Made by a program: the position numbers and the translations under genes. Below the pieces are notes generated by a model. It saw only the letters and a program-made list of their open reading frames with translations, was not told where the DNA came from and did not search any database. A DNA stretch of 64,000 bases from Arthrobacter alpinus (lineage in GTDB: Bacteria > Actinomycetota > Actinomycetes > Actinomycetales > Micrococcaceae), in the NCBI RefSeq assembly GCF_900105965.1, contig NZ_FNTV01000002.1:310001-374000 (forward strand), written 5' to 3'. Positions 7,490 to 32,643 of the stretch are shown in pieces (position 1 is the first letter of the stretch; each line of letters starts with the position of its first letter).

Positions 7490-7575
7490 GTTCCTACTAG
7501 ATCACATCGCCAACATAGGTTTCTGGCAGCTGCCGACATTCTTGGCGCTAATAGCTGTTCAACTCCTACTCAGCG

Positions 7576-10605: not shown

Positions 10606-10721
10606 ATTCCAATGTTCGGCTTCATGAACGACAGTTGTGGCTGCTTGTCATAGGAACATCCTTGAACGACTTGGCAGATCCAACTCGGTGGGGCTGTTGC
10701 GGTGACGAACCAGTCCGAGGG

Positions 10722-17515: not shown

Positions 17516-17950
17516 CTATTCGAGAGTCTTCTTGCGTCGGCGAAGCACATTCAACACAGCTCCTAACAGAACCAATACCCCGGCGCCTAGAACGGCAAAC
17601 CCGAGACTAGACCCTCTCTGCAACGTTTGCTTCCGCTTAGCGGGTACTTCAGCACTATCACCGAGACTGTGAGCCACCTCGTTAGCGTGAACAGGTGGAG
17701 ACACCGGAACTAGGATCAGCATCGGTTCAGACACCCATCTGATTGCGTCGACTCTGACCGGGAAGTCAACAGCGTCTGAGTCCGGCTGTCGGGTAATCTC
17801 TCCCCCAGCGATCATATTTACGCTTGCGGCTGACGCTGTAGGTGCAAGCCCAATAGCCCCTGCCATCAGGGAAGCGATCATTACAAGGGCTAGGAGCACT
17901 CTTTGCACCGCGATAGGTCGGTGCAGCGCACCGACGTCTGTTCGTTTCAT
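17516..17950 (-). CDS. small exported, membrane-anchored protein
   Basis: A 144-residue protein starting MKRTDVGALHRP. A signal peptide (LLALVMIASLMAGAIGL, then ASAAS) ends at about residue 38. A short extracellular region of about 70 residues follows, then one transmembrane helix (GFAVLGAGVLVLLGAVL) and a basic RRRKK tail. That order is like a sortase substrate, but no LPxTG-type motif precedes the helix (KRKQTLQRGSSLG). The open frame extends upstream of 17950 without conserved features. It is divergent from the first copy of the A-B-C-D cassette. A surface or sensor role is plausible but unproven. Confidence 0.6.
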   Translation of the reverse strand: MKRTDVGALHRPIAVQRVLLALVMIASLMAGAIGLAPTASAASVNMIAGGEITRQPDSDAVDFPVRVDAIRWVSEPMLILVPVSPPVHANEVAHSLGDSAEVPAKRKQTLQRGSSLGFAVLGAGVLVLLGAVLNVLRRRKKTLE

Positions 17951-18368
17951 CAATCTGCCCAAATCTAGAAGTTTCCGTAGTGGGTCCACACCGTCCGATT
18001 CGAAGGCGAAGCAGAGCTGTGCAGGAGTAAAGTGCTGTCCCGTCCCTCTGAAGACCGAACAGGTTGGAAGAAGAAAACACCTGACATACCTACAGAGTGC
18101 ACAGAGAACCATTTCATGACGTGAGATTCCCGGGCCTCGGGTCCAGAAAAGCATCCCCAACGAAGTTCTAGTGTCGTTTTGCCCGCCTCCGGTGTAAGGA
18201 AATTAAACTCTTTGCCGTCATAAAAAGGCGTGTGGGCGCTCAATATGAGTGTGTGGTTGTTTGGCTAGCCGCGTCCGTCACCGGGCGGAAAAGGTTGCAC
18301 ATAATCTGTCCCGGCTGAGATTTGACCAGTTGCACGCACGATTCAATGTGCCTAGAGGAATGATGAAA

Positions 18369-18521: not shown

Positions 18522-19088
18522 ATGCTCAGGCTTCGGAACCAAACTGCAGCAATACCCATGATCACGCGCCGAAGAGGACAAAAGCCCGTGGGAAATAATT
18601 CTCACACAGGCGTGGCCCGAACAGCACCGGAACAACGTACGATCCAGCTGGATGCACAATGTCCGCTGGCGAGTTTTACACAGGCCGACGGTGTCGAAGT
18701 ACCAGGGATCAGCTTGGTGTACTTGGTGGATCAAGTATCCGCCGGCACTAGGGAGCATTTGAGGTTTACGGCGTGGATACTCAATGGCACCCCGGAGACT
18801 TTAACGGGCGTCGAACTGCAGCTGAGATCGTTCACGAATGACGCACTGGACCAACTGACCTACTTGACGCAACCAGAACCCCAGGAACTCAAGGGGCGAA
18901 CGCTGGGCCCCCGGCAATCGTTGCGGTTTCCCTTCAGCTACATAACGAGCCCTAAGGACCTTGAAGGTGACGGACTGCTGATCAGCGCCTTGCAGGCGGA
19001 ACTTAATTTTCCTGCCACAGGAAGGCTGTACAGCGAATGTGACGCGGTCGTGAACGCCCGTTGCAGGAAAGTAATGCCGCCACGATGA
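18522..19088 (+). CDS. cassette protein A (copy 1), Ig-like fold, unknown function
   Basis: A 188-residue protein of unknown family, clearly paralogous to the 185-residue product at 26274-26831. Shared blocks include GISLVxxxxQ, LxFTAWILN, SFTN, RTLGPRQ, SYxx, GLLISALxA and SECDA. The central pattern (FTAWILNGTPETLTGVEL, then an alternating strand with TLGPRQSLRF) resembles CARDB/DUF11-type Ig-like modules. There is no signal peptide or membrane segment. AAAGGGG precedes the start. It overlaps gene B by four bases (ATGA). First main gene of the operon A-B-C-D. The function is unknown; association with the pilus operon in the other copy suggests a role in surface structures. Confidence 0.75.
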   Translation: MLRLRNQTAAIPMITRRRGQKPVGNNSHTGVARTAPEQRTIQLDAQCPLASFTQADGVEVPGISLVYLVDQVSAGTREHLRFTAWILNGTPETLTGVELQLRSFTNDALDQLTYLTQPEPQELKGRTLGPRQSLRFPFSYITSPKDLEGDGLLISALQAELNFPATGRLYSECDAVVNARCRKVMPPR

Positions 19089-19378
19089 ACCACGATGACA
19101 CTTCTCGGGATACGAATGCGGCCACAACAGCAGGATGGACATCCTCAGAGTCTTGTTTGGGAAACGCTCCCCCAATGAAAGATTCCGTGCTACTAACCAT
19201 AAAACTCTCCCGCAGCATGGCTGAGGAGTTGCAAGCCGCGTTTCGGGTGGCCGGGAACATGGAAGGGTATGGCTCCATCAACGACCTCCTTGTTGAAGCA
19301 ACCCGTCAAGAAATGCGGCGCCTTCAACGCGGTTACAACAATGGCCACCCGTGGAAGACGTCCCCGAGTGGTCTCTAG
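19085..19378 (+). CDS. cassette protein B (copy 1), ribbon-helix-helix-like
   Basis: A 97-residue protein. A variable polar N-terminus of about 30 residues is followed by SVLLTIKLSRSMAEELQAAF, then GYGSINDLLVEATRQEMRRL. The strand-helix-helix pattern suggests a ribbon-helix-helix DNA-binding fold, although the loop is longer than in classical Arc/CopG proteins. Paralogous to the product at 25952-26218 (shared AxRVAGxxEGY..NDLxVEAxxQExRRLQ pattern). The start at 19085 overlaps the stop of gene A. A likely regulator of the cassette or of the pilus operon, by inference only. Confidence 0.65.
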   Translation: MNHDDTSRDTNAATTAGWTSSESCLGNAPPMKDSVLLTIKLSRSMAEELQAAFRVAGNMEGYGSINDLLVEATRQEMRRLQRGYNNGHPWKTSPSGL

Positions 19379-19454
19379 CACTAGCCACCTATTCCCACCA
19401 CACATTGAGCACCCGAACGAGCCCTCTGTGTCTAATCGACGGGTCGATGCATTC

Positions 19455-19676
19455 ATGAGAAAAGAAATACGGATTCCCTACAGCAACGATCATTTCGTCG
19501 TCGAATCAGAACGAGTCCCCGCGTTGTTAGAGCTGCCCATCGTGAGAATCTCACTCCGAAACCAAAGGATCGCACTGACACCACAAGCCGCACAAGAACT
19601 TGGCGCAGCTCTCCTGGAAGGGGTCCGTTGTTGCACCGAAACCACGCAGAATGCTCGGATCCACGCCCCTAGTTGA
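19455..19676 (+). CDS. cassette protein C (copy 1), small unknown protein
   Basis: A 73-residue protein starting MRKEIRIPYSNDHFVVESE. It is strongly similar to the 61-residue product at 25707-25892 over the first 55 residues: (K)EIR(I/L)PYS(N/E)D(H/N)F, E(R/M)(V/I)PAL, L(P/L)IVRIS, RIALTP, AL(L)(E/D). The alternating pattern suggests a small beta-rich domain followed by one helix (QAAQELGAALLEG). No signal peptide or membrane segment. Third gene of the A-B-C-D order, 76 bases after B. Family not recognised. Confidence 0.65.
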   Translation: MRKEIRIPYSNDHFVVESERVPALLELPIVRISLRNQRIALTPQAAQELGAALLEGVRCCTETTQNARIHAPS

Positions 19677-19747
19677 GCCCGCGACGAGAACACCTGTCAT
19701 CCCGCTCAAACTGTCATGAGCACCCAACCCTTATCAGGAATCACCCT

Positions 19748-20095
19748 ATGACGATCATCCTGCCGCCGGCAAACACCTCGAATCTGTCCGAACTTCTATC
19801 CAAACGAGGGTGGCACCGCAACACCGAAATCACCACCCTTGACTGCACAGTGTGGGACTTTGAGCCAAGCCTGCCAGAACAATTCGCGGACGATCAGGAC
19901 GTCTCACCGACATGCCTGTTCATCTATGACGTGGATGAACTCGGGTTTTGTGGCGTTGAGCCCGCTACACGGACCACAGAGTGGAATCCCCTCTCCATGA
20001 CATTCGATCGGCTGGAGGACTTCCTCCCGTGGCTGCCGGCCATCGAACATTGGCGCGCAACCGAACCCTGCGAACCCCCTTCACATCACATCTGA
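19748..20095 (+). CDS. cassette protein D (copy 1), unknown function
   Basis: A 115-residue acidic protein with a ribosome site AGGAA before its ATG. It starts with TIILPPANTSNLSELLSKRG, then CTVWDFEPSL, CLFIYDVDELGFCGVEPA and LEDFLPWLPAIEHWRA. The last two blocks are recognisable in the two-frame remnant at 25262-25667, so D belongs to the duplicated cassette. There is no signal peptide or known motif. The Trp-rich, acidic character suggests a small cytoplasmic protein-protein interaction domain; this is inference. Confidence 0.6.
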   Translation: MTIILPPANTSNLSELLSKRGWHRNTEITTLDCTVWDFEPSLPEQFADDQDVSPTCLFIYDVDELGFCGVEPATRTTEWNPLSMTFDRLEDFLPWLPAIEHWRATEPCEPPSHHI

Positions 20096-20340
20096 AACTT
20101 TTCTGAGAACTATAGATTCAAAGTCTTTTGTGTCCCTGCCCTGCGGATAGCAGGGGGTAACAAACCGTTTGCTCCGAACTATGCCACTCACATTCATGGA
20201 AATCATCATCTGCTGCCGACAGTGAGTCATTTCCTGCCGCGTCATCGCCTGAAATTAGGAAGCCCCGATCCGCACCAGCCGCCGGATGTTTCTGACCATT
20301 CGACCGAATTTACCGTTCATCAGCTAATAGGAGGACCACC

Positions 20341-20670
20341 ATGCGTGAGGAACCTGAGGCCGAGCCCCGGACCACAAGTGACTTCGACAATCAAGACCCA
20401 GATGAAATGCTCAAGGAACTGCACGAATACCAGCTACTAGGAAAGTGCTTCGAAACACTCAACTACTACGAGATGATGGGACGCGGATGGCTTATTGAAC
20501 ACCCACTCACACTCGTCGAAGGCCACTCAGAAAAACTGCGCCGTGCCCAACGTGAGCTAGATGCCTCAGTTGCCCTGGCCCGGAGCCAAGGCACTGCTTG
20601 GACGGACATCGCACAGGCCCTCGGCGTGAACGTTGAGGAAGCCCGTAACCGCTTCACAGCAACTGACTAG
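20341..20670 (+). CDS. small helix-turn-helix protein
   Basis: A 109-residue protein with a strong ribosome site (GGAGGA, six bases). The acidic N-terminus is followed by a mostly helical middle (KELHEYQLLGKCFETLNYYEM). The C-terminal segment LARSQGTAWTDIAQALGVNVEEARNRF matches the sigma4-like helix-turn-helix common in small actinobacterial proteins. It lies 245 bases after cassette gene D on the same strand and could belong to that transcript. Probably a DNA-binding accessory regulator; target unknown. Confidence 0.65.
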   Translation: MREEPEAEPRTTSDFDNQDPDEMLKELHEYQLLGKCFETLNYYEMMGRGWLIEHPLTLVEGHSEKLRRAQRELDASVALARSQGTAWTDIAQALGVNVEEARNRFTATD

Positions 20671-21118
20671 TCCACATACCTATCTGTGCGAGTTAGCGGT
20701 GCCGAAACCACTGTGGTCAAACCGGCACTGGTCCTGCCCCGAATCTTTGATCCTGCGATGATTCATTGATTCATTTGCCGGTGTGTAGTTTTGCGTCATA
20801 GAACGTGTTCCAAGATCTCTATAGAAGTGTGGGGTGTTGTTGCCGTCAAGGGCCTGTCGGCACTGACAAGGTGCGACAGCACCTCACACTTCCGGCCCTG
20901 CTGGCATCCCCGCCGTGGTAGGGCTGGATTTAGATTGGACAAGGAAACTTGAGACCGTTTCCGACACCAATCGAAAGAAGGCTAGGTCGATGCCCGCCCC
21001 CGATGCAACAACGACCTAGCCTTCACCCTCCTTGCGGGCACCTTCCTCGTATTACGACGGAGGCAGTCCAAGCCGAACACCACTGATAGACCTCTGACCA
21101 CGATTGAAGGCCACCACC
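20671..21118. other. intergenic stretch with a terminator hairpin
   Basis: About 450 bases without a gene. It contains a 13-base perfect inverted repeat (GAAGGCTAGGTCG at 20977-20989 and its complement at 21012-21024) that could terminate the A-B-C-D transcript. The rest shows nothing recognisable. Confidence 0.5.
20977..21024 (+). terminator. hairpin after the copy-1 cassette operon
   Basis: A 13-base perfect stem around a 22-base loop, downstream of the helix-turn-helix gene and upstream of the next small gene. The T run is weak, so it may be an attenuator or another RNA structure. Confidence 0.5.
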
Positions 21119-21391
21119 ATGACATTTGAGCCAACCGAAGAAATCGTAGAGATCGGTGCCCGCTTCCTGGCCGGCCTCACCAACGATCAACCATGGCCAT
21201 CCCCTTTACAGCTCAGTGACACGCTCGCACAGACCCCCGACACTCGCTTCCATACAGCCATGACGGCGGAATCAACAGCTTTTCTACTTGCTGTCGGTCC
21301 CCTAATCTACGCCGCTGCCCTCAACCGGGCTGCGGACATCATCAATGGAAAATGGACGATTCCTACGCTTAAAACCGACCCCAACAGCTAG
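21119..21391 (+). CDS. hypothetical 90-residue protein
   Basis: A small acidic, largely helical protein starting MTFEPTEEIVEIGARFLAGL, with a hydrophobic stretch STAFLLAVGPLIYAAALNRAADIINGKW near the C-terminus. No family recognised. AAGG lies ten bases before the ATG. It follows the terminator-like hairpin of the cassette operon and has the same orientation. Confidence 0.4.
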   Translation: MTFEPTEEIVEIGARFLAGLTNDQPWPSPLQLSDTLAQTPDTRFHTAMTAESTAFLLAVGPLIYAAALNRAADIINGKWTIPTLKTDPNS

Positions 21392-21731
21392 ACGCCGACA
21401 TTCACTGAACCCCGGTGCCTACAACAACCCCGCACCCGCAAGCTTCACTGGAACGTGTCGGGCCAAGGTGTAGTTGGTAACTTGGTCAGATCCAACAGGG
21501 TGGGGGAACACGGTTTTTACTGATGCAGTGCCTGAGCGAACACTCACAGTGAGGCCACATAGTCCTCAGGGCAAGGACGGTAACGATCGCCACGACCGGC
21601 GCCCTCAAACTCGTCGGATGGTGAGCATCGGCCAGTTTTCCCTATCAATTACCGTCCCGGCCTCTCCAACAAGGGCATGGTGTGCACGCAGGCGCCAACG
21701 AACAACGAAACCACCGCCCTAGCCGTCTTTG

Positions 21732-21905
21732 ATGACCCATACAGAAACCCAATTCGCGGCATCGAAGAAAGTCGAATACGAACCCTACCAATGCTCACAA
21801 GGAATAACTACCCTCCTACCGGATGGTCTTAAAGATCACCCACAGCCAAGCAGCGTTCACTTTTCAGTGACCGATCGTTGCGCACGGCAGTTTCCCTTCT
21901 TCTGA
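21732..21905 (+). CDS. possible 57-residue small ORF
   Basis: A short frame starting MTHTETQFAASKKVEYEPYQ in a stretch of about 850 bases (21392-22246) that otherwise holds no gene. There is no clear ribosome site and no family. Included only because it is the best candidate in the gap. Confidence 0.2.
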   Translation: MTHTETQFAASKKVEYEPYQCSQGITTLLPDGLKDHPQPSSVHFSVTDRCARQFPFF

Positions 21906-22246
21906 TGAACCAAGGGCTTCACCAATGACTTTATGAGATTCGATTGTGATGCCAGTTCAAGGAAGAACGTGGAGGTGCGGAGTGGCTTTCTACATCCACA
22001 AGGGCTTGAAAAAGGCGGTTTACCTTTCATGTTATCTAGTGGAGGACGAGCGTCAGTGCCCGTTTACCGGACTTCGGGCTCGTCAGAGAACCTCACCAGC
22101 TACCCAAGCGTTCTTTCCCAAAAAAACTAGATCAGGGAGATCCTTGGGTAGCCGGGCCAATAACACTCGAGTCCTTTGACTTCACTGTCACCAGCTCAGG
22201 GAGTTCATCGGAGACAGTGCCTGAATTCTCGGGCGAATCTATTGGA

Positions 22247-22879
22247 TCAAAATACTTGCGCGTTACCGAAAGCCAAGTAGCCTTGCTCAGAGTGTTCGCA
22301 TTCGCCTTCCGTCTTCGAGACAATGAACTTCAACGACTGTCCCCCTGTTAGAACAACTTGAAGAGGGGACCCTCCGTCGCTGTCGATCTGCAGCCTGGTG
22401 ATGAGTTCATCATCGAGATAGACATCGACAATCGCTTTGATCCCAGCAGGCGTACCCAAACGCAAACCCACCTGTGACTTGAAGACTTTGAACTTGCCTT
22501 CTAGCTTGAAGCTGCTCTGATCCGGTGTTCCCTCGCAGCCCATGTATTGAGACGTCGAATGGTCGTAGTTAGTATTCGACGCATCACCAGCCAGAACCAC
22601 GCTGGTAGTGTCGACGGGTCGTGTTGATTCGTGGCTAAGTGCATACAACCATTGGCCACCCTCAGGCAATGATTTCAATTGCGTGGCGGTTTCCTCTGGC
22701 ATAGCGGACTGCACGGGCACGAGCGTGCGCGCAGAAGCAGAAGCGGTCGACGCCGTCGGGCTGGAGGAAATTGTTGCCGGGCCTGCCGTGCTTCCGCCTG
22801 TGGCACAGGCTGACAGCCCCATGCCGACAACCATGAAAATTGACAGCGCTGCTGTAACACGGACGCGATTGGTCTCCAT
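22247..22879 (-). CDS. lipoprotein with NPCBM-like beta-sandwich domain
   Basis: A 210-residue exported lipoprotein. The signal peptide ends in lipobox LSAC at about residue 25, then a Ser/Thr/Ala-rich linker of about 40 residues. The C-terminal domain from about residue 95 (SFKLEGKFKVFKSQVGLRL, then VDVYLDDELITRLQIDS, QSLKFIVSK, YLAFGNAQVF) has the NPCBM (novel putative carbohydrate-binding module) pattern. GAAGGAG precedes the start. It sits beside the LAMTG-anchored adhesin on the same strand. Probably a surface lipoprotein that binds glycan or cell-wall material. Confidence 0.75.
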   Translation of the reverse strand: METNRVRVTAALSIFMVVGMGLSACATGGSTAGPATISSSPTASTASASARTLVPVQSAMPEETATQLKSLPEGGQWLYALSHESTRPVDTTSVVLAGDASNTNYDHSTSQYMGCEGTPDQSSFKLEGKFKVFKSQVGLRLGTPAGIKAIVDVYLDDELITRLQIDSDGGSPLQVVLTGGQSLKFIVSKTEGECEHSEQGYLAFGNAQVF

Positions 22880-23237
22880 GTGCTTTTCTCCTTCGTTGAA
22901 TTACGGGACGTATGGCGGGTCTAACCGGGCGTGCCTCCGACATTGATCGCGCCCGAGAACGAAAGCCAAGAAGATCATCAGGCTGGGCCACACTAAAACT
23001 GCTATTTCACGACGATAAAGTCCAATCGGATAGGCATTCTCAAAGCCGCGAGATCGGCCGTCAACTCCGACAGTGCCGGCTAGAATCGACCATCAGCTGG
23101 GTCCTGCCATTCCGAAAGGGGCCGACCATAAGGGGTCTTTGAACTGAACCTTTCGATCATCTAATCGACAGGGCTAACTAAGAGTGCCCCCAGCAGCCAA
23201 AGTTGGCCGGTGGGGACACTCCCATTTTCTTAGTACG
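22880..23237. other. intergenic stretch with a terminator-like hairpin
   Basis: About 360 bases between the adhesin stop and the lipoprotein start. An imperfect hairpin (GAGTGCCCCCA...TGGGGACACTC, about 23183-23226) follows the adhesin gene and has T-rich flanks on the leftward transcript; it probably terminates it. No gene was seen. Confidence 0.5.
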
Positions 23238-24872
23238 TTAGTGCGATCGCTTCGATTTGCGACCGATGAGCATTACAGATGCCAAACCCATAATCAAGAG
23301 AGCACCCGCCCCGGAAACAAGCACTCCGAGATTCAACCCAGTCATGGCAAGACCATTTTCCGAAGGAGCGGACGATTCCCTAGCGTTGGTCGGTGCAGCA
23401 ACTACCCCGGTTTCCCCGCTCGGAATCACGGTGGGCTCGACACTCGGAGTCACAGACGGGCTCGGGCTCACGGTCGGCTCCACACTCGGAGTCACAGACG
23501 GGCTCGGAGTCACAGTCGGCTCCACAGTGGGCGTGATGACCGTTGTGGCGGTGTTAGTCAAAACTAGATCGACTCCGGCAGTAGTCCCGGGGGTCACCTC
23601 ATAGGTCCCATTCGATCCTGGGCTTACCCCTTCACCTGATAGCACCCAAGCGCCCCATTCGACGCCGGCAAGCTGCGGCAGATCGATCTCTTCAATGACA
23701 AAGGTGGAGCCCAGCGGAAAGCGTTCGCTCTTCGTGGACTGGCCGACGTGAACGAGCATGGTCCTTGGTTCTTCCAAAGAACCTTTGGCGGCGTATCGGA
23801 CAGTAAAAGTCTCATCGCGTGCCGCCTCTGTTGCGTCACCGGTGAGGGCCTTGGTGATGGAAAAACGGGTATATTCTTTCCCACTACCTGTACCACCACC
23901 CTCGGCCTTAACGACGTAGGTGGAGGATGTCTCAGTAGTGCCTACCTGGGCGCGATTGCCGAATACGTCACCGTCCAGGACAACGCCCTCAGCTTCGGTG
24001 GTGTAGATCAGGCGGTAGCTATAATCCGTATTGGTCAGGTCGTGAGCGGTGAATTCAAAGGACTTCATGTCTGCGGCCCACTCAACCGTGTACTCGGAAG
24101 GATCAATTGTGACCCAGTCGCCCACGAGTTGACCGTCGGCTACGGGGCGGCCCATCAATGAAATCTCTTGGGTGTAGTGATGATTCTCCGCGGCCGCGTC
24201 GAGCTGATCAGATACTGTGAAGGCTTGGTTCTGTATGTAGCTATCGGGAATCCCGATGGTCCATATGAACTCTCCCGGGATGCCCGTGGCGCCACTGAAC
24301 TTGTAGGGATTTTCAGGTGCTGTCATATCCTCGGGAGTAATTCCCCCGGTTCCGGGGAGATCAACGGCAATGATTGCGCCGCTGACATCGAACTCAACAG
24401 ATTCCTGGGTTGTGGATTCGCTGGCTTGGGCGGTCATCCAGAATGAACCACCGATGTCGACTTGCCCGTCGATGGCATCGGTCAGGGTACAGACAACTTC
24501 CGGGCCGGATCCCTGGCTCACTACGCACGTCGCGAGCACTTTATTGGTTACCGGGTCGAGGATGTCGAAGTCTCCGGTACCGTATCGGCTGAATTCACTC
24601 GGGAGAGTCATGCCAAAGGTATCTCCAGACGTAGACCCGTTGGGAACAGACCAATCTGCGGTAATTTTGATAAAACTCCACTGATTCAAGGGGCCGCTGC
24701 TACCGTCTTCATGTTCCAATTGAATGTTGGAAATGGCATTCGGGTAAGTCACGGTGGGGGCCGCCTGAGCCATCTCAGTGGGACCCAGCATGCTCCCCAT
24801 AGCCAGCACCATGGCCAAGATCAGGGCCACCGGATACCCCCAAGCAGACTTAAGCATTCTAGTAGATTTCAT
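23238..24872 (-). CDS. cell-wall anchored adhesin with LAMTG sorting signal
   Basis: A 544-residue exported surface protein. The signal peptide runs to about residue 38 (AQAAPT). The N-terminal half resembles the Ig-like adhesive domains of MSCRAMM proteins (ITADWSVPNG, FSRYGTGDFDILDP, the latch-region YSYRLIYTTE). A DUF5979-like domain (RFSITKALTGDA, FTVRYAAKG, FVIEEIDLPQL) follows at about 345-445. Then comes a repetitive PSVEPTV/TPSPSV wall-spanning stalk, and finally LAMTG at 508 with a hydrophobic helix and RKSKR tail. LAxTG motifs are typical of class E sortases, whereas the sortase in this window is class C. The start at 24872 was chosen by the signal peptide; the upstream frame lacks support. 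Confidence 0.85.
   Translation of the reverse strand: MKSTRMLKSAWGYPVALILAMVLAMGSMLGPTEMAQAAPTVTYPNAISNIQLEHEDGSSGPLNQWSFIKITADWSVPNGSTSGDTFGMTLPSEFSRYGTGDFDILDPVTNKVLATCVVSQGSGPEVVCTLTDAIDGQVDIGGSFWMTAQASESTTQESVEFDVSGAIIAVDLPGTGGITPEDMTAPENPYKFSGATGIPGEFIWTIGIPDSYIQNQAFTVSDQLDAAAENHHYTQEISLMGRPVADGQLVGDWVTIDPSEYTVEWAADMKSFEFTAHDLTNTDYSYRLIYTTEAEGVVLDGDVFGNRAQVGTTETSSTYVVKAEGGGTGSGKEYTRFSITKALTGDATEAARDETFTVRYAAKGSLEEPRTMLVHVGQSTKSERFPLGSTFVIEEIDLPQLAGVEWGAWVLSGEGVSPGSNGTYEVTPGTTAGVDLVLTNTATTVITPTVEPTVTPSPSVTPSVEPTVSPSPSVTPSVEPTVIPSGETGVVAAPTNARESSAPSENGLAMTGLNLGVLVSGAGALLIMGLASVMLIGRKSKRSH
23430..23535 (-). repeat. tandem repeat coding the Pro/Ser/Thr stalk
   Basis: A 42-base unit, coding roughly TPSPSVTPSVEPTV, occurs about two and a half times within the adhesin gene. 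It forms the wall-spanning linker just upstream of the LAMTG signal. Length variation between strains is expected for such repeats. Confidence 0.7.
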
Positions 24873-25261
24873 AATTCTTCCTCGATATAGGCGAGCAGGG
24901 TGGGTAGCAAGTTGCTTAGGAGCCCATGGACTTCCAAGGTTCGGTGGCGGTTGGAACCAGCTCACGCCTCGTCATTCGCTACGTAGCGTGAGCTGTGGTG
25001 GGGGATGCCAACCTTCTCCTCAGGTCCATGTGTCAACCGGAGAGGAAAGGGAACATCCCCCACGTATAGAGAGTGCTGCATGGACAAATCATGACGCGCG
25101 AAGGGCAATCAGAATCTTGGACTGGTCCTTTTGCTTCACTGATCGGTAATGGCCTATGCCTGAGCGGGTTGAGTATGCCGGATTGATGCGACAATCAGCT
25201 CGAATTCCTTCAGGGTCAAAAGTTCTACATCACGGCTAAGGCGCAGGTCACCGAATGAGGG
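24873..25261. promoter_or_regulatory. upstream region of the adhesin gene with two inverted repeats
   Basis: About 390 bases between cassette D' and the adhesin. It contains AGCTCACGC/GCGTGAGCT (24959-24967/24986-24994) and GTGGGGGATG/CATCCCCCAC (24998-25007/25054-25063). A TTGACA on the minus strand (25036-25031) is a possible -35 box, but no good -10 follows at the right spacing. The repeats may be operators or a leader RNA structure. Confidence 0.35.
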
Positions 25262-25667
25262 TTAATGGTGGGGATGAGAAGGGAAGTTGCCTAGTGGATA
25301 AATCAACTCATCGGAGGTAATCTCGCCGATTGCTCCAATCCGGGAAAGTTCTGCCAGGGCGGCTTGGGTGACCCTAACAGGGGCGCGCCGGTGTTCGATC
25401 TGAGGTAAATAGGCGATCAAATCAGCGGCCTCCCGGAAAAGGCCTGGCGTACGCATTTCGAAGCGTTGACCAGCTGGCCCGTTCGACCGTGTCAAAGCTC
25501 GGTTTTTCTGGGGTGTGGATGGAAACCCATTCGGAAGTCCCTGGGGGCTCAGGGGATTTGCTGCCCGTCATGCTGAGGGCAAAGTCCCAGGCAAGGCATT
25601 CTGTCGGACTGAGTATCGCTTTTAGCTGTCCTCCTCTCGTCGGGGGCAGGGTTAGCCGGTGTGGCAT
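25262..25667 (-). pseudogene. cassette gene D (copy 2), split by a frameshift
   Basis: Two overlapping frames together correspond to protein D of copy 1. The first (from 25667) has LTLPP, CLAWDFALSM and WVSIHTPEKPSFDTVERAS, matching LPP, CTVWDFEPSL and CLFIYDVDELGFCGVEPAT. The second (from about 25495) has LFREAADLIAYLPQIEHRRA, matching FDRLEDFLPWLPAIEHWRA. The shift lies between about 25440 and 25495. The second frame continues about 30 residues beyond copy 1. Either a broken gene or a sequencing error. Confidence 0.6.
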
Positions 25668-25706
25668 GGGGTGAGAGGGTTGTCTCAGGACTCTTCTTCG
25701 TAAATC

Positions 25707-25892
25707 TCATGGTCGTTGAAGACTCGCGTCGAGGAGTGCGTGTCCAAGGTCTTTCGCCTCTTTGGGAGTCAATGCAATTCGGATTTCTCCAACAGAGATT
25801 CTTACGATGAGTAGGTCACGGAGGGCCGGAATCATTTCGGTTTCGACAGTGAAGTTATCCTCGCTGTAGGGAAGCCTGATTTCCGTTTTCAT
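25707..25892 (-). CDS. cassette protein C (copy 2)
   Basis: A 61-residue protein, MKTEIRLPYSEDNFTVETE at the start, paralogous to the 73-residue protein at 19455-19676. The shared core covers EIR..PYS.D.F, PAL, IVRIS and RIALTP, and the copy-1 C-terminal tail is missing. AAAGGTGATCA precedes the start. It lies 59 bases after B' in the pilus operon. Function unknown. Confidence 0.65.
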   Translation of the reverse strand: MKTEIRLPYSEDNFTVETEMIPALRDLLIVRISVGEIRIALTPKEAKDLGHALLDASLQRP

Positions 25893-25951
25893 TGATCACC
25901 TTTCAGAAGCAAGCTGCGCCAATGACGGCACATTGGGGCAGCTTTGGACAT

Positions 25952-26218
25952 TTACGAGGAGCACTCTTGAGTGCATGCTGGATTCACATCTGCCTGCTCG
26001 GGCCAATTGGCATTGGAGTTGTAGCTGTGCTGCAAACGTCGAACCTCCTGGTGAATCGCTTCGACGAATAGATCATTGGCGCGTAGGTAGCCTTCTGATT
26101 TGCCTGCCACCGCTAGAGCGGAGTGCAGTTGATGCACTAGCCATTCTGGGAGAAGCAATTTCATGGACACAAGCACTTGCTCCAGGACAGGATCATCTAC
26201 GAAACTAGGTAGCGACAT
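25952..26218 (-). CDS. cassette protein B (copy 2), ribbon-helix-helix-like
   Basis: An 88-residue protein. VSMKLLLPEWLVHQLHSALA is followed by GYLRANDLFVEAIHQEVRRL, aligned without gaps to the same region of the protein at 19085-19378. The strand-helix-helix pattern suggests DNA binding, but this copy is less basic. AGGAAA precedes the ATG at 26218; an ATG at 26233 is also in frame. It lies 55 bases after A' in the leftward pilus operon. Possible repressor or co-regulator of pilus expression. Confidence 0.65.
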   Translation of the reverse strand: MSLPSFVDDPVLEQVLVSMKLLLPEWLVHQLHSALAVAGKSEGYLRANDLFVEAIHQEVRRLQHSYNSNANWPEQADVNPACTQECSS

Positions 26219-26273
26219 TGCTTTTCCTCTCATTGCGCCGGGCAGGTTGTGTCTGGACGGACTGATGGTTCAG

Positions 26274-26831
26274 TTATGGCAGCGACAGGACGCTGGGAAC
26301 AGCGACGGAAATCAAGGCATCGCATTCACTGAATACCCGTCCTCTGCCTGGCATCACGAGATCGGCTCGGAGAGCGCTGATGAGTAGTCCCGGCTCTTCG
26401 AGGTCCCGCTCGGTCACCACGTAGCTGAAGCAATACTTCAGCGCCTGCCTGGGCCCAAGGGTTCTCCTGACGAATTCGACAGTCTGGGGTTCAGTCCTAT
26501 AATTTAGCTGCTCTCCAAGCTCGTTGGTGAACGAGCAGAGGTGTAATGAAACATCCGTGAGCACTAGATTCGTGGCGTTCAAGATCCATGCAGTGAATGT
26601 AAGGAGATCACCCACCTTCGCCGAGTCCTGCGCTGCCATGTGGACTAAGCTGATGCCGGCTTCCTCTGTGCCGCCGTCGTCAGGAAAGAACCCTGCCAGG
26701 GGATACTGTGCCGGGGCCCGATTCGTGCCAAGGACGACATATGCGCTGGTTTCCTGGGGTACGGCAGGGGCTCGTCTCTGCATTTCGGTCGTATCGATAA
26801 CCGATTCACCGCTCATCGTTACGTTATTCAT
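26274..26831 (-). CDS. cassette protein A (copy 2), Ig-like fold, unknown function
   Basis: A 185-residue protein paralogous to the one at 18522-19088, with an Ig-like core (LLTFTAWILNATNLVLTDVS, RRTLGPRQALKYCFSYVV, GLLISALRADL). There is no signal peptide and no membrane helix, so it is probably cytoplasmic or exported by an unknown route. Its start overlaps the sortase gene by 8 bases, which places it in the pilus operon directly after srtC. The N-terminal 45 residues are not conserved between copies. Confidence 0.75.
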   Translation of the reverse strand: MNNVTMSGESVIDTTEMQRRAPAVPQETSAYVVLGTNRAPAQYPLAGFFPDDGGTEEAGISLVHMAAQDSAKVGDLLTFTAWILNATNLVLTDVSLHLCSFTNELGEQLNYRTEPQTVEFVRRTLGPRQALKYCFSYVVTERDLEEPGLLISALRADLVMPGRGRVFSECDALISVAVPSVLSLP

Positions 26832-27750
26832 TCTCTTCTGCTCGTTCGCTCGTCTTTTGGACTCGCCGACTCTGGGGGCTGCTGAGGATGATCACTCCGA
26901 CCGCGGTGCCTACGAGGATGACCACCCACCATGGGAAGCCGGGGTCGGTGACATTGCTGGGAATTGTTTGCGGGCCCTTCGCGGCGGCATCCGGGGCGGG
27001 GACGCGTTCACCCCGGACAAGGAGGCGGTGGGTATTGACGCCGGTGGGGGTGCAGGTGATCAGGGTGATGTAGTCCTTGCCCTTGATCTGGCGCAGGTCG
27101 TCAGTCTCGTCCGGTAGCACGGTCTTGATTTGATCGACCTTGTAGTAGATCGTTTCGTCGAGGACTGTGACGCTGAAGACGTCGCCCGTGACGACCTTTT
27201 TCAGGGAGTCGAACAGGGTGGAACTGACGTACCCGGAATGGGCTGTGAGCACACTGTGCGTGCTGGTGCCACCAACTGGCAGCGATGAGCCAAAGAGATG
27301 CCCCACACCTTTGGTCAGACTGGCCTCTCCGGTGCCGTGGTAGATCGGCAAGTTCGTCTTAATGGAGGGAATGCTGATATTGCCCATGATCCCGTGTGAA
27401 TTTACGGAGAGCATGTTCTTGTAGGCCTCAGAGCCCGAACCGACGGTTTCCTTTTCGCCCTTTTCATTGAGCGAATACGGGTCCCGAAGAGGTCCGGCCG
27501 GTAGCTTCGCGTTGTAAGCGCGTGCCTGGGCGAGTAGTTCTTCCTGCGCGGTCGGAGCTAAATCCTTTACTGTGTCTGCGTAGCCGCTAATTTCAGTGGC
27601 ATGAACCCGGTCCGAGAACCAGCCCGCCGCAGTCGGGTAGAGCAGAACACCCACCCCGACTGTCGCAACGATCACGATCATCATCCGTTGCAGACTCCAG
27701 CGTGGGCGCGGCCGTCTTAGCCGTCGAGCAGGGCTGCTGAGAAGTGACAT
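26824..27750 (-). CDS. srtC: class C (pilus-assembling) sortase
   Basis: A 308-residue membrane transpeptidase that joins pilin subunits. An N-terminal transmembrane segment (MMIVIVATVGVGVLLYPTA) is followed by the lid region with a DPY motif (GPLRDPYSL), which matches the DPW/DPF lid of class C sortases. Then comes the catalytic core: His in VLTAHSGYV, Cys in TLITCTPTG, Arg in THRLLVRG. A C-terminal transmembrane helix (WWVVILVGTAVGVIIL) and a basic tail complete it; the C-terminal helix is also class C-specific. It is third in the pilus operon and is followed by A'-B'-C'-D'. Confidence 0.93.
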   Translation of the reverse strand: MSLLSSPARRLRRPRPRWSLQRMMIVIVATVGVGVLLYPTAAGWFSDRVHATEISGYADTVKDLAPTAQEELLAQARAYNAKLPAGPLRDPYSLNEKGEKETVGSGSEAYKNMLSVNSHGIMGNISIPSIKTNLPIYHGTGEASLTKGVGHLFGSSLPVGGTSTHSVLTAHSGYVSSTLFDSLKKVVTGDVFSVTVLDETIYYKVDQIKTVLPDETDDLRQIKGKDYITLITCTPTGVNTHRLLVRGERVPAPDAAAKGPQTIPSNVTDPGFPWWVVILVGTAVGVIILSSPQSRRVQKTSERAEENE

Positions 27751-27876: not shown

Positions 27877-29361
27877 CTAGCTGTTGTTGCTGGCGCGGCG
27901 GTTGCGAACCAGCAGCAGTGCAGCTCCGGCGAGAAGCAGGATGCCTCCGCCGTAGAGCAGCGACGTTCCCGGGCCACCAGTGAAGGGCAGCTCAAAGCCA
28001 CTGTTGGAGGGGACGTTCTTGACCTGCAGGTCAACACCGACGGCCGTTGTTGCTGCGTTGACCAAGAAGGAAATCGGCTCAGCCAACAGTTCATAGCCAC
28101 TCGGTGCGACAGTCTCTACCAGGTAGTACGTGCGGTAGTTCGCGTCACCGGGGACCAGAGCAACACCATCGGCGAAGTCAGAGTAACGCAGGCCCGTGAT
28201 GGTCAGCTGGCCATCGGTACCGACGGTGAAGACGGTCTCGCCAGCCAGGTTGATCGGGTTCGTGCCGGCCTTGGCGTCTGCTTCATTGGCATAGACAGAG
28301 AATGATGCACCGGCAAGGGCTGTACCGTTTTCGTTGATCTTTTCAAGCGTCAGATTTCCCCACTTGGTAACAACCGGAGGAGTAACGATGGGACCACCGG
28401 GCTGGCCGGGAACGACGTCAAAGCTGTGCGCGTTCGGGTAAACGTTTGCCACGTTCGCAATCTCACCGATGGTGTTAACCGTTGTTTTGACAATAACGAC
28501 TACCTTGGTCGTGTTGTGCTGAGCCAGCAGTGCGCGGCCGGCCGGGGTGAACACTACGGAGACAGTGTTGGTCGCCGCGTCGAAGACTACGTTGTAGTCG
28601 GTTCCCTCGGTGAGGACGGTACCGTCCAGCAAGGTTGCGGTGGTGCCAACGTGGGTCAGCTTGGTATCGAGCTTGTCTGTGATCTTGTAACCGTCGATGA
28701 CGGCATCCGTGGGGATGTCAGCGGTGATGGTCCAGTTCACAGCGTCACCGAGTTTGATCGCAGAAGCATCCTTGACGGTCTTCTCAGCGCCGGTGATGGA
28801 GTTCTTCGGGTACACATGAACGTCGTAGAGCCAGTTGTCCTTGTTGGTCGGATCCGTCAATGGAACCGACACCAGGAACGGCGCTGACGGTGTGACACCG
28901 GCCGGGTAGTTGGTTTCAGTGACTAGGTACAAGCCCAAGCCCAAGTCGGGGAACGCCGCAGTACCAGCAGCATCGGTGACCTGCGATACGCCTGCACCCA
29001 CGGTGTAGCCGGCGCCAGTGATGGATCCTGAGGGGTTGGCCGGATCAAAGGCGTTGCTCAGGGTGTTGGCTGACTGCCAGCCAGCGTTCGTAGTCAGGTC
29101 AATGGTGTTGACCTGCTGAATCTGGAACGTAACACCGGAGAGCGGAGTCAGGCCCGTGGTGTCAACCTGGGTGCCATTAGCCGGCAGGCCTGTGGGGGTG
29201 CTGGGGCGTTCAAACTTATGAACCGTGATGGAACCAGTCTGGCTGCCATCAACGATGGGGGCAGCCGAGGCCGGAGTAATGGCGAAGCTCGATGCCAGCA
29301 CCGCTCCTGCCAGAGCAACGGCGGTTGTCCGCCAGAGGCCGCGCTTGTTGTTCAGAGACAT
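27877..29361 (-). CDS. major pilin subunit, LPFTG-anchored, SpaA/SpaH type
   Basis: A 494-residue pilin. The signal peptide ends ASAAP at about 34. An N-terminal domain contains the pilin motif with its linking lysine, WLYDVHVYPKN (about residue 190). CnaB-type isopeptide domains follow, the last with the E-box Glu in YYLVETVAPSGYELL (about 415). LPFTG at 458 precedes the C-terminal helix and RNRR tail. The SrtC sortase is expected to join the Thr of LPFTG to the pilin Lys of the next subunit. The start at 29361 (AGAAAG ten bases before) is preferred to an ATG at 29385 lacking a ribosome site. Second gene of the operon. Confidence 0.93.
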   Translation of the reverse strand: MSLNNKRGLWRTTAVALAGAVLASSFAITPASAAPIVDGSQTGSITVHKFERPSTPTGLPANGTQVDTTGLTPLSGVTFQIQQVNTIDLTTNAGWQSANTLSNAFDPANPSGSITGAGYTVGAGVSQVTDAAGTAAFPDLGLGLYLVTETNYPAGVTPSAPFLVSVPLTDPTNKDNWLYDVHVYPKNSITGAEKTVKDASAIKLGDAVNWTITADIPTDAVIDGYKITDKLDTKLTHVGTTATLLDGTVLTEGTDYNVVFDAATNTVSVVFTPAGRALLAQHNTTKVVVIVKTTVNTIGEIANVANVYPNAHSFDVVPGQPGGPIVTPPVVTKWGNLTLEKINENGTALAGASFSVYANEADAKAGTNPINLAGETVFTVGTDGQLTITGLRYSDFADGVALVPGDANYRTYYLVETVAPSGYELLAEPISFLVNAATTAVGVDLQVKNVPSNSGFELPFTGGPGTSLLYGGGILLLAGAALLLVRNRRASNNS

Positions 29362-29472
29362 CTTGTTCTGCTTTCTATTTTTCATTGAGTGATGAGAGAT
29401 TTGGTGCAATGGAGGAAGAATGTGGAGCACCTGGGGTGCTCGCGGGCGCTGGGATGGGAATCGTGGCTTCAC

Positions 29473-32229
29473 TCAGCTAACTTCCGATCCGTCAGTGCGT
29501 CGTCGCCGCTGACTGAGCAAGAGGCCTGCAGCGGCCAAAATCAGCACAGATCCGCCAGCTGTGAATGCAACCGTGCCGGGACCGCCGGATTCGGGAAGTT
29601 GCAGAGCAGGTACATCTCGAACGGTGATAGTGAAGATTCCGTAACCCGCAGCATCCGCTGCAGTCACCACTCCCCCACCAGCACCTTGACCGATGCTCAC
29701 AGCACCATTGGCCGCGATCGTGAACTGCACCGGCTCCGCAAGCAAGCTAAACCCTGCCGGGGCAGCGGTTTCAGTGAGCCAGTAGGTACCAACCGGAATA
29801 TTGCTCAGCTGGAACTGACCCGTAGACGCAGGAACCACAGCACCCACAGCAGTGCCTGTGTAGGGGGTGCCCGGCTGGCCGGCGTTGTCATTGAAGACAG
29901 CCCAAGAGGAGCCATCCATGGGGACCCAGGTAGCACTGCCGGATTCGCCGATCTTTTGGATCAACACTTTGGCCGGAGTCAGATGTGTGGTGGTGCAAAC
30001 GGGCGCCACCGGGGTGACCCCCACCGCACAGGTAGTTGGTGAGGTGTCGCCGGATCCGGTGACCACATTGATGAGTTGCTTGTTCCAAACATTGGCCTTG
30101 ACCGTGACCTGGTAGCGCAATGTTGCAACCACTCCGGGGGCAAGGTTGAATTTTCCGGTCGTGAGTATGTAGCCCGGGGCCACTGGGTTGGGCACCGCAA
30201 CGGGCGCCCCACCACCGACCGTGAGGGTGGCCGAACCCGCCACAAACGTGGCGTCGTCCAGAACGTTGGCCAAGTTATCTGTCAGCAGGGCGTTGCTGCT
30301 CAGTCCGCTGACACCCGTGGCCTTGACTGTGTAGGTGATAACGTCGCCACCCTGAACCACATTGGTAGCCGGAGCAGTCCCGTTGACCATGGCAGTTTTC
30401 GCAACAGTCCACACACCCGGCAGCGGCGGTGTCGTCACCGTGGCCGAACAACCACTCCCGGGAGACGGCGGACAATTCGTATCCACGGTAGTCACCGTTG
30501 TGGTTGACCCGGGCACCGGGTTGGTACCGCCGCCGGGCATATTGGGAATCGGGGTCGTGGCCGCCGGGATGATCGTGGCCTTGTTGACCACGTTTCCCGT
30601 CGTCCCGATTCCAACCGTGCCCGTGATGGTGTATCGGATGGTTCCGCCAGTGTTGATCCGCACAGTGTCAGTAATGCTCCCCGTTCCGCTGGCGGCACCA
30701 CACTTGGTCGGTCCCGATATGGGAGGCAGATTCGCCGTCCCCAGCGCCGTGACCGTGCACGTCCAAGTCGCACCGGTGATGGAGGCCGGCAACGGATCAG
30801 TCAGTACGGCGTTAATGGCGTCACTGGGTCCGTTGTTGTGGGCGGTCACCGTGTAGGTGATCGTGCCTCCCGGGGTGTACTGGGCCAGGTTGGCGCTCTT
30901 GGTGATGGAAAGGTCGACGACGGGCAGCACCGTCAAAGGTGCCGTGCCCGGAGGGTTGATGCCCGAGATAGTCGGGAAATTATTGGTACAGCTCGGAATC
31001 GTCGTGCCGTTGTTCGCAACGCAACCGGAGTTGTTGTAGTTGCCCGGAGTATTACTGGTGACCGTCACGGTGATGGTGCACGAGGCACTACCGGCAGCCA
31101 AGTTCCCAGTGACATCAACAGTGCCCGCGGCGACGCTGGACGCCGTCCGGACACACGTACCGCCCAAGGTGCCGCTCGCGGTGAGCCCGGCGGGCAGGTT
31201 GTCAACAAAATGCCACCCATTCTTGGCCGCTAGGTCGCTCGTGTTCGTCACCGTGTATGTCAGAGTCGTGCTCGCACCTTGAGTCATCGTGGTGGGGCTG
31301 AAGGACTTGTCCAACTGCGGGGTGACATCCACCAGTTGTGGGAGGTCGAAGCCAACATCGTTGCCAGCGCCGTTGGCCTGAGTATTCTCCACCCGGAGGC
31401 CCAGGGTCGGGGTGCCCGTCAAGGGAACCTGGATCGCACCCGATTGCAGCCTCGCGATCTTGACTCCATTGACCACCTGCGCCGAGGGATCTGTACACGG
31501 ATTGAGGTTCTGTCCGACCACCGTCGCAACCCCGTTCACAAGGATCGAGAATTTCTGTTGCGCCTGAGGGGCGGGCGAAAGGCAATTCGTTTCGCCAAAA
31601 ATCCCCGACACTGCATAGAAATGTCCGGCAACAGCCGGGATTGCGGTCTTGGTTTCCAGTTGTATACCGGCAGCCTGGGCACCGCTCGTGGAGTTCGTGT
31701 ATTCGCTAAGGATCTGGTTAGCCTGCGCCTGCGCAACCGTCATACCCTGGTAAATGCCCATCGCATAGGCCATATTGCCCAGATCAGTGAAAGCGGTATT
31801 ACGCGCGCACTGGTCATTGTTAGTGACGACACCAATTTGAGGCAGTGCCAGCAATGTCAGGTTAGCCGGCACAGGGGTCCCCTGCCGCAAAATCCAACCA
31901 TTACAGGCCTGCGCCCCAGGACTCCACGCCGCATCAGCCTTGTACTGCTCGTTTAGGGCCGCCGCACCCCCAACATAGTTTCCTATTTGAATCGGCACAC
32001 CGGCTGCGCTCGTAGCAGAGAAATCCTCCGAATAGACGGGAACCCCCGGCTGAGTCACCCCGGGAGTCCCTGGGTTGGCAGATGCCGGCGTTGTAGAGCC
32101 CAGGATGCGAACGGCCGACAGCCCAAGGGTCACAATCGCCACGCACAGGAAAAGCGTGAATAGGGACAACAGCCCTTTGCGCCTAGGGCGCACACCGGCA
32201 ACTCCTAATGGAGTCCGACTAACCTGCAT
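29473..32229 (-). CDS. pilus tip adhesin, LPESG-anchored, with DUF11 repeats and SpaA domain
   Basis: A 918-residue surface protein, first in the pilus operon. An Arg-rich N-terminus and signal helix (LLSLFTLFLCVAIVTLGL) precede an N-terminal adhesive domain (about 60-320). Three DUF11-like Ig repeats follow, each starting like TYTVTNTSDL, TYTVTAHNNGPSD and TYTVKATGVSG, and then a SpaA/CnaB domain with the E-box YWLTETAAPAGFSLL. LPESG at 878, a hydrophobic helix and RRRR end the protein. No YPKN pilin motif was seen, which fits a terminal (tip) subunit. The start at 32229 has AGAGAGAAG at the right distance. Confidence 0.9.
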   Translation of the reverse strand: MQVSRTPLGVAGVRPRRKGLLSLFTLFLCVAIVTLGLSAVRILGSTTPASANPGTPGVTQPGVPVYSEDFSATSAAGVPIQIGNYVGGAAALNEQYKADAAWSPGAQACNGWILRQGTPVPANLTLLALPQIGVVTNNDQCARNTAFTDLGNMAYAMGIYQGMTVAQAQANQILSEYTNSTSGAQAAGIQLETKTAIPAVAGHFYAVSGIFGETNCLSPAPQAQQKFSILVNGVATVVGQNLNPCTDPSAQVVNGVKIARLQSGAIQVPLTGTPTLGLRVENTQANGAGNDVGFDLPQLVDVTPQLDKSFSPTTMTQGASTTLTYTVTNTSDLAAKNGWHFVDNLPAGLTASGTLGGTCVRTASSVAAGTVDVTGNLAAGSASCTITVTVTSNTPGNYNNSGCVANNGTTIPSCTNNFPTISGINPPGTAPLTVLPVVDLSITKSANLAQYTPGGTITYTVTAHNNGPSDAINAVLTDPLPASITGATWTCTVTALGTANLPPISGPTKCGAASGTGSITDTVRINTGGTIRYTITGTVGIGTTGNVVNKATIIPAATTPIPNMPGGGTNPVPGSTTTVTTVDTNCPPSPGSGCSATVTTPPLPGVWTVAKTAMVNGTAPATNVVQGGDVITYTVKATGVSGLSSNALLTDNLANVLDDATFVAGSATLTVGGGAPVAVPNPVAPGYILTTGKFNLAPGVVATLRYQVTVKANVWNKQLINVVTGSGDTSPTTCAVGVTPVAPVCTTTHLTPAKVLIQKIGESGSATWVPMDGSSWAVFNDNAGQPGTPYTGTAVGAVVPASTGQFQLSNIPVGTYWLTETAAPAGFSLLAEPVQFTIAANGAVSIGQGAGGGVVTAADAAGYGIFTITVRDVPALQLPESGGPGTVAFTAGGSVLILAAAGLLLSQRRRRTDGSEVS

Positions 32230-32643
32230 GACACGCTTCTCTCTACTCAACCAAAGACATCCTTCAAGGGAGGTTTGAAGTTCCTCCGCCATCCGCCCCT
32301 CGCCTCAGCCCCACCGGTGGTCGTGCGATGAGTCGAAGAGCATTCATGAGTAAAGAGTGATTCGCCGGCTGATAATGACGTGAATTCGCAAAAGATTTCG
32401 TAATCCCGTGAGCGGGCCACAAGCGCCCTCGTGGCGGCGATACTCGTTGAGGTGCTTGAGTCGCTCAGCCGTGCTAAATTAACTCGCTAGAGGTTGGTAC
32501 CTGACGCCAAAGACCGACAGAACCCCGTCACAACGAATTTTCAACGATTCTTATGCTCTCATTCCTATTTTGAAGCGCCTGACACGGCGACCCCAATCCT
32601 GAGGCGACGTTTTTCAGGATCCTTTCTTACGAACGGCAACCCC
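32230..32643. promoter_or_regulatory. divergent control region of pilus operon and ECF sigma gene
   Basis: About 410 bases between the leftward pilus operon and the rightward membrane-bound sigma factor. It must hold both promoters. No consensus sigma70 boxes stand out. An AT-rich patch lies at about 32475-32490 (CTAAATTAACTCGC). The reading frame of the sigma gene extends upstream through part of this region to a TTG at 32494 but shows no conserved sequence there. Confidence 0.5.

What the first reader, a model, noticed from the sequence alone, without database searches (positions are those of the whole stretch)
18522..26831. Duplicated four-gene cassette A-B-C-D of unknown function linked to sortase pili
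Genes A (18522/26274), B (19085/25952), C (19455/25707) and D (19748/25262) occur twice in the same order but in opposite orientation, flanking the adhesin and lipoprotein genes. In copy 2 they directly follow the class C sortase, overlapping it by 8 bases. Protein similarity is clear in all four although the nucleotide sequences have diverged, so the duplication is old and the set was kept together. A is Ig-like but cytoplasmic by sequence, B looks like a ribbon-helix-helix regulator, and C and D are unrecognised. I know of no named system with this composition; a pilus-control or pilus-assembly accessory module is my inference.
Basis: partly seen in the sequence, partly recalled or inferred. 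Interest (0 to 1): 0.82.

Follow-up and report, generated by a model that had tools for sequence, protein, structure and literature searches.

The report
Accessory genes of sigma-controlled pili
A duplicated set of small genes in a soil bacterium turns out to be linked to hair-like surface fibres and to a membrane-anchored gene switch that, in related species, carries a copy of the fibre subunit itself.

Summary
The duplication is real for A, B and C. D is broken in copy 2 and lacks its C-terminal half in copy 1. The set belongs with pili: srtC-A-B-C-D recurs in this order in a third locus of this genome, on an A. alpinus plasmid and in one further genome.

A is the core: an Ig-fold protein without apparent signal peptide, related to DUF7507 adhesin repeats. 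18 of 29 A loci hold an ECF sigma factor, 17 of these long proteins with a zinc-finger region. A lies within 1.5 kb of 23 of 30 top-scoring sigma loci fetched from a sister genus.

A promoter-like motif, CGTCAYKA-N13-15-CACT, precedes the pilus operon, two other surface-type genes in the window, and 17 of 45 A genes tested.

In eight sister-genus genomes the sigma is fused in frame to a whole pilin, 80-92% identical to the operon's shaft pilin.

Reading: A (with B, C, D here) belongs to a pilus/adhesin regulon run by a membrane-tethered sigma. A's biochemical role is inferred, not shown.

The parts
18522..19088 (+). A1: Ig-fold protein without apparent signal peptide (DUF7507-like), copy 1
19085..19378 (+). 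B1: ribbon-helix-helix-type protein (CB_ParB_C)
   Evidence: E 3.2e-8, above cut-off
19455..19676 (+). C1: small conserved protein, weak DUF6437-like
   Evidence: E 0.007, below cut-off
19748..20095 (+). D1: truncated relative of a 184-193 aa family
26274..26831 (-). A2: copy 2 of A, overlaps srtC by 8 bases
   Evidence: DUF7507 E 4.6e-5, below cut-off
25952..26233 (-). B2: copy 2 of B
   Evidence: CB_ParB_C E 0.04, below cut-off,
25707..25892 (-). C2: copy 2 of C
25422..25667 (-). D2 remnant, N-terminal piece
   Evidence: 56 bits, profile 15-86/169
25262..25495 (-). D2 remnant, C-terminal piece in another frame
   Evidence: 57 bits, profile 85-143/169
26824..27750 (-). class C sortase
   Evidence: NF033745 2.8e-78
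27877..29472 (-). SpaH/EbpB-type major pilin, LPFTG
   Evidence: NF033902 2.1e-117
29473..32292 (-). adhesin with DUF7927, DUF7933, DUF11, SpaA domains and LPESG-type tail
32356..32380 (-). promoter-like motif in front of the pilus operon
32494..34497 (+). membrane-tethered ECF sigma factor (sigma2/4, zinc-finger motif, hydrophobic helix, Pro-rich, weak Big_6); likely start 32644 (inferred)
23238..24965 (-). second surface protein with anchor-type tail (Big_8, DUF5979; LAMTG)
25072..25096 (-). promoter-like motif in front of 23238-24965
17516..18160 (-). short ORF with signal-peptide-like segment and hydrophobic, basic tail (by eye); no Pfam hit, no sorting motif found
   Evidence: sequence
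18096..18121 (-). promoter-like motif in front of that short ORF, between it and A1

Best explanation
A, B, C and (where intact) D are accessory genes of a pilus/adhesin regulon run by a membrane-tethered ECF sigma factor (here 32494-34497). SHOWN by sequence: repeated linkage of A to this sigma type; one promoter-like motif in front of surface operons and of a good part of the A genes; Ig-fold A without apparent signal peptide; RHH-type B; in a sister genus, fusion of the sigma to the shaft pilin. INFERRED: the sigma is held at the membrane by its zinc-finger part; a change at its outer domain (pilin, Ig-like or lectin) leads to proteolytic release, as proposed for ECF52; free sigma transcribes the adhesin-pilin-sortase operon and A. 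A accumulates in the cytoplasm as the surface protein is made and most likely acts back on the pathway, either by binding the sigma's cytoplasmic part or by binding adhesin/pilin precursors of its own fold class. B is probably a local DNA-binding regulator; the roles of C and D are not known, and I guess them to be helpers of the same operon.
For: A linked to sigma in 18 of 29 A loci (one of the 18, L031, is a bare sigma without the membrane part). From the sigma side: A within 1.5 kb of 23 of 30 sister-genus sigma loci and 4 of 13 own-genus loci, two more at about 6 kb; part of these are the same loci as in the 29. Motif: 33 hits in 29 loci (531,872 bp) against 2.2 expected from 5 Markov simulations; in front of 17 of 45 A genes tested against shuffle mean 0.27, maximum 2 in 200 rounds, including one A (L046) with no sigma in 19.5 kb. 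In the own genome 3 of 8 hits cluster in 14.3 kb of this window. The 3 tethered sigmas found in the own genome each adjoin a DUF11-class protein with an LPXTG-like tail and the motif in front (one motif with 1 mismatch). ABCD in order in 5 loci. Eight sigma-pilin fusions with pilin lysine motif and E-box, 7 of 8 with an LPXTG-like signal, at the head of adhesin-pilin-srtC. A model pLDDT 85.
Against: 11 of 29 A loci show no such sigma in the stretch scanned (13-19.5 kb; window 15-36 kb), including copy 1, whose nearest sigma is 13.4 kb away; for one of the 11 (L080) a sigma lies about 9 kb off, outside the stretch. 7 of 30 sister-genus sigma loci have no A within 1.5 kb; L133 has sigma, motif and a pilus operon but no A, L132 sigma and motif but neither A nor a recognised surface gene. 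The motif is absent in front of 28 of 45 A genes, including both window copies and all 5 fusion-locus A genes. Its 8 own-genome hits barely exceed the reversed-pattern control (6). Many loci share one chromosomal site, so counts are not independent events. Outer domains of 21 non-fusion sigmas did not match DUF7507/DUF7933 profiles. The third own-genome locus (L020) has broken genes and no sigma or motif hit. No interaction, transcript or phenotype was measured.
Confidence: 0.68

Rival explanations
1. A is a dedicated cytoplasmic chaperone or gauge for DUF11-class adhesin and pilin precursors before export; its link with the sigma is only co-regulation.
For: A shares profile similarity with adhesin repeats (hhalign E 3e-7 against DUF7507 repeats; controls A against pilins 0.17, A against sigma outer domain 0.069). 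DUF11-class domains were found in all 5 sigma-adjacent surface proteins scanned (window, L023, L124, L142, L143). Foldseek neighbours include TRAP translocon subunits and a fimbrial chaperone (E 5e-5 to 7e-4, TM 0.33-0.43), which is fold class only.
Against: A stays beside the sigma whether the neighbour is a DUF7507-type giant or a pilus, and some A genes lie where no sortase, sigma or pilin profile hit was found (L022, L049).
Confidence: 0.3
2. A is a debris domain shed from DUF7507 adhesins and carried along without function.
For: Copies in L020 and L047 are split between frames or open frames, and D is decaying in the window.
Against: The A family keeps invariant residues over 23 members at 39% mean column identity, an open frame in most loci, a position beside the sigma and often a promoter motif. 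Selection was not measured.
Confidence: 0.08
3. ABCD is a plasmid-maintenance, toxin-antitoxin or defence cassette that only happens to lie near pili (B resembles the partition-protein family CB_ParB_C).
For: B1 hits CB_ParB_C and B weakly the 'putative plasmid related protein' 3no7 (E 0.13); L033 is a plasmid and the window lies on a 384.6-kb contig.
Against: No PADLOC hit for the 8 proteins scanned, no toxin family among the Pfam, NCBIfam and PHROGs hits, a copy with sortase and sigma on a 4.03-Mb contig (L044), A without B in 13 of 13 sister-genus loci.
Confidence: 0.05

Closest known systems
ECF52 sigma factors (SCO4117 of Streptomyces coelicolor; PMC5826349 and PMC8999054, passages seen)
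   Same: ECF sigma with zinc finger, membrane region, proline-rich stretch and outer domain; proposed release by proteolysis
   Different: Outer domain in the window is weakly Ig-like, in sister-genus genomes a complete sortase-type pilin; partner gene A, and adjacent adhesin/pilus operon with shared motif; phylogenetic group assignment not tested
SigI/RsgI biomass sensors of Clostridium thermocellum (PMC12203970 abstract; PMC4711584 listing only)
   Same: Membrane-bound control of a sigma by sensing proteins, with intramembrane proteolysis
   Different: There sigma and anti-sigma are separate proteins and substrates are sensed; here one protein, and in the fusions the outer domain is the product itself (a pilin)
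SpaA-type sortase pilus operons of actinobacteria
   Same: adhesin, SpaH-type pilin, class C sortase
   Different: Accessory genes A-D and a tethered sigma, not part of the canonical locus as I recall it
DUF7507 (PF24346)
   Same: A aligns with the domain over about 80-100 residues
   Different: A is a single-domain protein below the family cut-off; elsewhere in these loci DUF7507 occurs as repeats in large surface proteins
CB_ParB_C (PF18064), named from plasmid ParB; identity of 3no7 with pCXC100 ParB is recalled
   Same: B1 is above cut-off
   Different: no partition locus was looked for

Membership tests
ECF52 sigma factor | sigma2 and sigma4 domains | tested here: met
   PF04542 3.4e-7 and PF08281 2.7e-7, both above cut-off
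ECF52 sigma factor | zinc-finger (zf-HC2) after sigma4 | tested here: met
   window sigma only E 0.004, below cut-off, but C247, H273, C277, C280 are invariant in 12 of 12 aligned sigmas; above cut-off in 5 of 8 sigma proteins and 4 of 4
ECF52 sigma factor | transmembrane region and proline-rich extension | tested here: met
   hydropathy peak 2.44 at 294-312 counted from start 32644; Pro-rich stretch visible
ECF52 sigma factor | carbohydrate-binding domain at C terminus | tested here: not met
   window sigma has only a sub-cut-off Big_6 match (E 0.00055); the C1 paralogue in L143 does carry a ricin lectin
ECF52 sigma factor | phylogenetic placement in group ECF52 | not tested
   no ECF classification library was at hand; I call it ECF52-like only
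DUF7507 | score above Pfam cut-off | tested here: not met
   A2 23.8, L033 A 22.8, L022 A 25.4, L021 A 13 against 27 bits; A1 no hit; related but not filed as member
DUF7507 | Ig-like fold | tested here: met
CB_ParB_C RHH protein | score above Pfam cut-off | tested here: met
   B1 34 against 27 bits; B2 only 14.5, B of L032 24.9, B of L033 no hit
plasmid partition system | adjacent ParA and centromere | not tested
   no ParA or centromere search was made
class C sortase pilus operon | class C sortase, backbone pilin with isopeptide domains and sorting signal, adhesin with anchor tail | tested here: met
anti-phage defence system | PADLOC profile match | tested here: not met
   0 of 8 proteins, E up to 0.1

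The most novel reading that the evidence does not exclude
Arthrobacter pili are wired to gene expression: a membrane-spanning sigma factor that carries a complete pilin (acceptor lysine, E-box and usually sorting signal kept) is joined by the class C sortase to the pilus, so assembly, anchoring or tension of the fibre controls release of the sigma and production of more pilus. A, a cytoplasmic Ig domain of the adhesin class, reports or buffers the amount of unexported surface protein to the same sigma.
Probability: 0.25. Interest if true: 0.95.

Novelty: new variant of a known kind. Interest (0 to 1): 0.74.

Why it matters
How Gram-positive cells sense whether their sortase-built pili are made and attached is, to my knowledge, open. 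A sigma factor carrying a near-copy of the shaft pilin, encoded at the head of the pilus operon, makes a direct link between fibre and transcription testable with ordinary genetics in soil bacteria. Source databases name the fusion proteins either 'major pilin' or 'sigma factor' (names shown), so the fusion may have been overlooked. It also gives the A family a context and a promoter motif.

Full report
1. What is there. The window lies on a 384.6-kb contig (C2) of a 4.62-Mb genome with two contigs. A, B and C are duplicated in opposite orientation as described. D is homologous in both copies by profile but intact in neither: the copy-2 region reads in two frames with a stop, and D1 lacks the C-terminal half of its 184-193-aa relatives. 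The A copies are old paralogues in different clades. Profile searches find six A loci in this genome: the two of the window, one beside a further sortase of the same type (L020), and three elsewhere on C1 and C2 (L019, L021, L022).

2. Linkage. I examined 29 A loci: 16 of the own genus (one of them a plasmid record, L033) and 13 of a sister genus (g10), in which the named relatives are called Arthrobacter or Paenarthrobacter. One fragment (G204:C119) was not fetched, and hits inside large surface proteins were not counted. ABCD in the same order: both window copies, L020, L033 and L044, with srtC directly before A in all but copy 1. L020 has A and D split between frames; L033 has a short B. 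B, C or D accompany A in 8 of 16 own-genus loci and 0 of 13 sister-genus loci. D has 7 homologues at E up to 1e-3 among 62 candidates scored; 5 of the 7 are on contigs of exactly the length of contigs carrying A.

3. The sigma. In 18 of the 29 A loci the scanned stretch holds an ECF sigma factor of one family; in 11 of 13 sister-genus loci it is the divergent neighbour of A. Seventeen of the 18 are proteins of 539-876 aa matching the profile through the zinc-finger region; L031 has only a bare sigma of 198 aa. Twelve aligned full-length sigmas share sigma2/4, invariant C, H, C, C of a zinc finger, a hydrophobic helix and a proline-rich stretch, then variable outer domains. Starting from the sigma instead: 44 of 150 sister-genus genomes and 9 of 23 own-genus genomes have matches at E up to 1e-30. 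Of the 30 loci fetched, 23 have A within 1.5 kb; of the 13, 4 do, and 2 more at about 6 kb. The fetched loci are the best-scoring ones, the profile was made from A-linked sigmas, and three of the 23 and all six own-genus ones are loci already among the 29, so this is neither unbiased nor independent; lower-scoring paralogues were not examined. Exceptions: L133 (sigma, motif, pilus operon, no A) and L132 (sigma, motif, no A, no recognised surface gene).

4. Sigma-pilin fusions. Eight genomes have a single open frame of 876-943 aa joining the sigma to a complete SpaH-type pilin (Pfam for two of them). All 8 keep the pilin-motif lysine (VYPK) and the E-box, 7 of 8 an LPXTG-like signal, and all show a hydrophobic helix before the pilin and another at the end. 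The fused pilin is 80-92% identical to the shaft pilin of the same operon. Gene order is sigma-pilin, adhesin of 1,131-1,189 aa, pilin, sortase on one strand; A is divergent in 5 of 8. A protein search lists 16 clusters carrying both sigma2 and pilin-D1 domains among its best 120 of 468 matches. The pilin tree indicates one fusion event, so these are descendants, not independent inventions. Seven of the 8 fusion loci and the ten sister-genus loci with DUF7507-type giants (L023-L025, L071-L077; giants recognised by the A profile) share the same small neighbour gene at 81-99% identity (query from L023; its family was not tested): the same chromosomal site holds either a giant or a pilus, and the sigma's outer half differs accordingly.

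5. Promoter-like motif. CGTCA[CT][GT]A, 10-18 bases, CACT gives 33 hits in 29 loci (531,872 bp) against 2.2 expected from 5 Markov simulations. By inspection 26 of 33 lie between sigma and surface gene, or in front of A or of a surface or surface-like gene; 7 do not (four just past the 3' end of A, three unassigned). In the window the three hits precede the pilus operon, the anchored-type protein 23238-24965 and the short surface-like ORF 17516-18160. Genome-wide the 13-15 spacing gives 8 sites (reversed control 6); three are the window's; one precedes a VWA/DUF7927 protein with LAYTG tail next to a second tethered sigma; three lie within other reading frames and one is unclear. A third tethered sigma, with a ricin lectin, adjoins a DUF7507 protein with LAYTG tail preceded by the motif with one mismatch. 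With one mismatch allowed, 17 of 45 A genes have it near their start (shuffles: mean 0.27, maximum 2 in 200 rounds). The 45 were chosen by me: L020, L033, L044, L047 and second tandem copies were left out, as were loci repeating a genome.

6. What A is. No signal peptide is apparent in the aligned members (by eye). The model is a confident Ig-like sandwich (residues about 49-179) with a low-confidence N-terminal tail. Profile comparison relates it to DUF7507 repeats of a sister-genus giant (probability 93, E 3e-7; controls against pilins and sigma outer domains 0.17 and 0.069). Nearest solved folds are generic Ig-like domains, among them TRAP, Spo0M and fimbrial chaperones; this does not show function.

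7. Mechanism and limits. The tethered sigma most likely works as proposed for ECF52 (passages seen): held by its zinc finger, released by proteolysis. That it drives the pilus operon and A rests on position and motif. A's role (feedback on the sigma, or chaperone/gauge of unexported adhesin) is inference; I give the two about equal weight within the best explanation. The most novel reading, a pilus covalently wired to its own sigma factor, fits the fusion anatomy, but nothing here shows that sortase uses the fused pilin. The window itself has no fusion: its sigma ends in a weakly Big_6-like domain.

Noticed in passing
L124-L131 (sister genus), e.g. L124:7232-9874: Membrane-tethered sigma factor fused in frame to a complete SpaH-type pilin, at the head of a pilus operon.
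   Followed up: yes
window 21104-21391 and L019:8387-8620: A small gene near A/C in both places begins alike (EIVEIGARFLAGLTNDQPWPSPLQL versus ELVEIGARILAGLTSDQLWPFPL; by eye), perhaps a fifth associated gene.
   Followed up: no
L020 (G000:C2:297000-314000): A third srtC-A-B-C-D locus of the same genome, with truncated pilin and split A and D.
   Followed up: partly
L143 (G000:C1), 6966-8765 and 9182-11806: Tethered sigma with a C-terminal ricin-type lectin next to a DUF7507/DUF6923 protein with LAYTG tail.
   Followed up: partly
window 22247-22879: Lipoprotein-like gene with a weak NPCBM match (E 0.0022, below cut-off) just downstream of the surface protein 23238-24965.
   Followed up: no
window 20341-20670: Small protein with weak PHROG matches, one to an HTH family (E 0.002-0.011), after copy 1.
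   Followed up: no
L022 and L049: Divergent stand-alone A-like gene in two own-genus genomes, grouped in the tree (97/97, long branches), with no sortase, pilin or sigma profile hit in the stretch.
   Followed up: no
L023-L025, L072, L073, L075, L077, L124, L127, L131, upstream of sigma: A second conserved element GATTCAAGTCA followed by TGTCACACT in front of the sigma itself, possibly its own promoter.
   Followed up: partly
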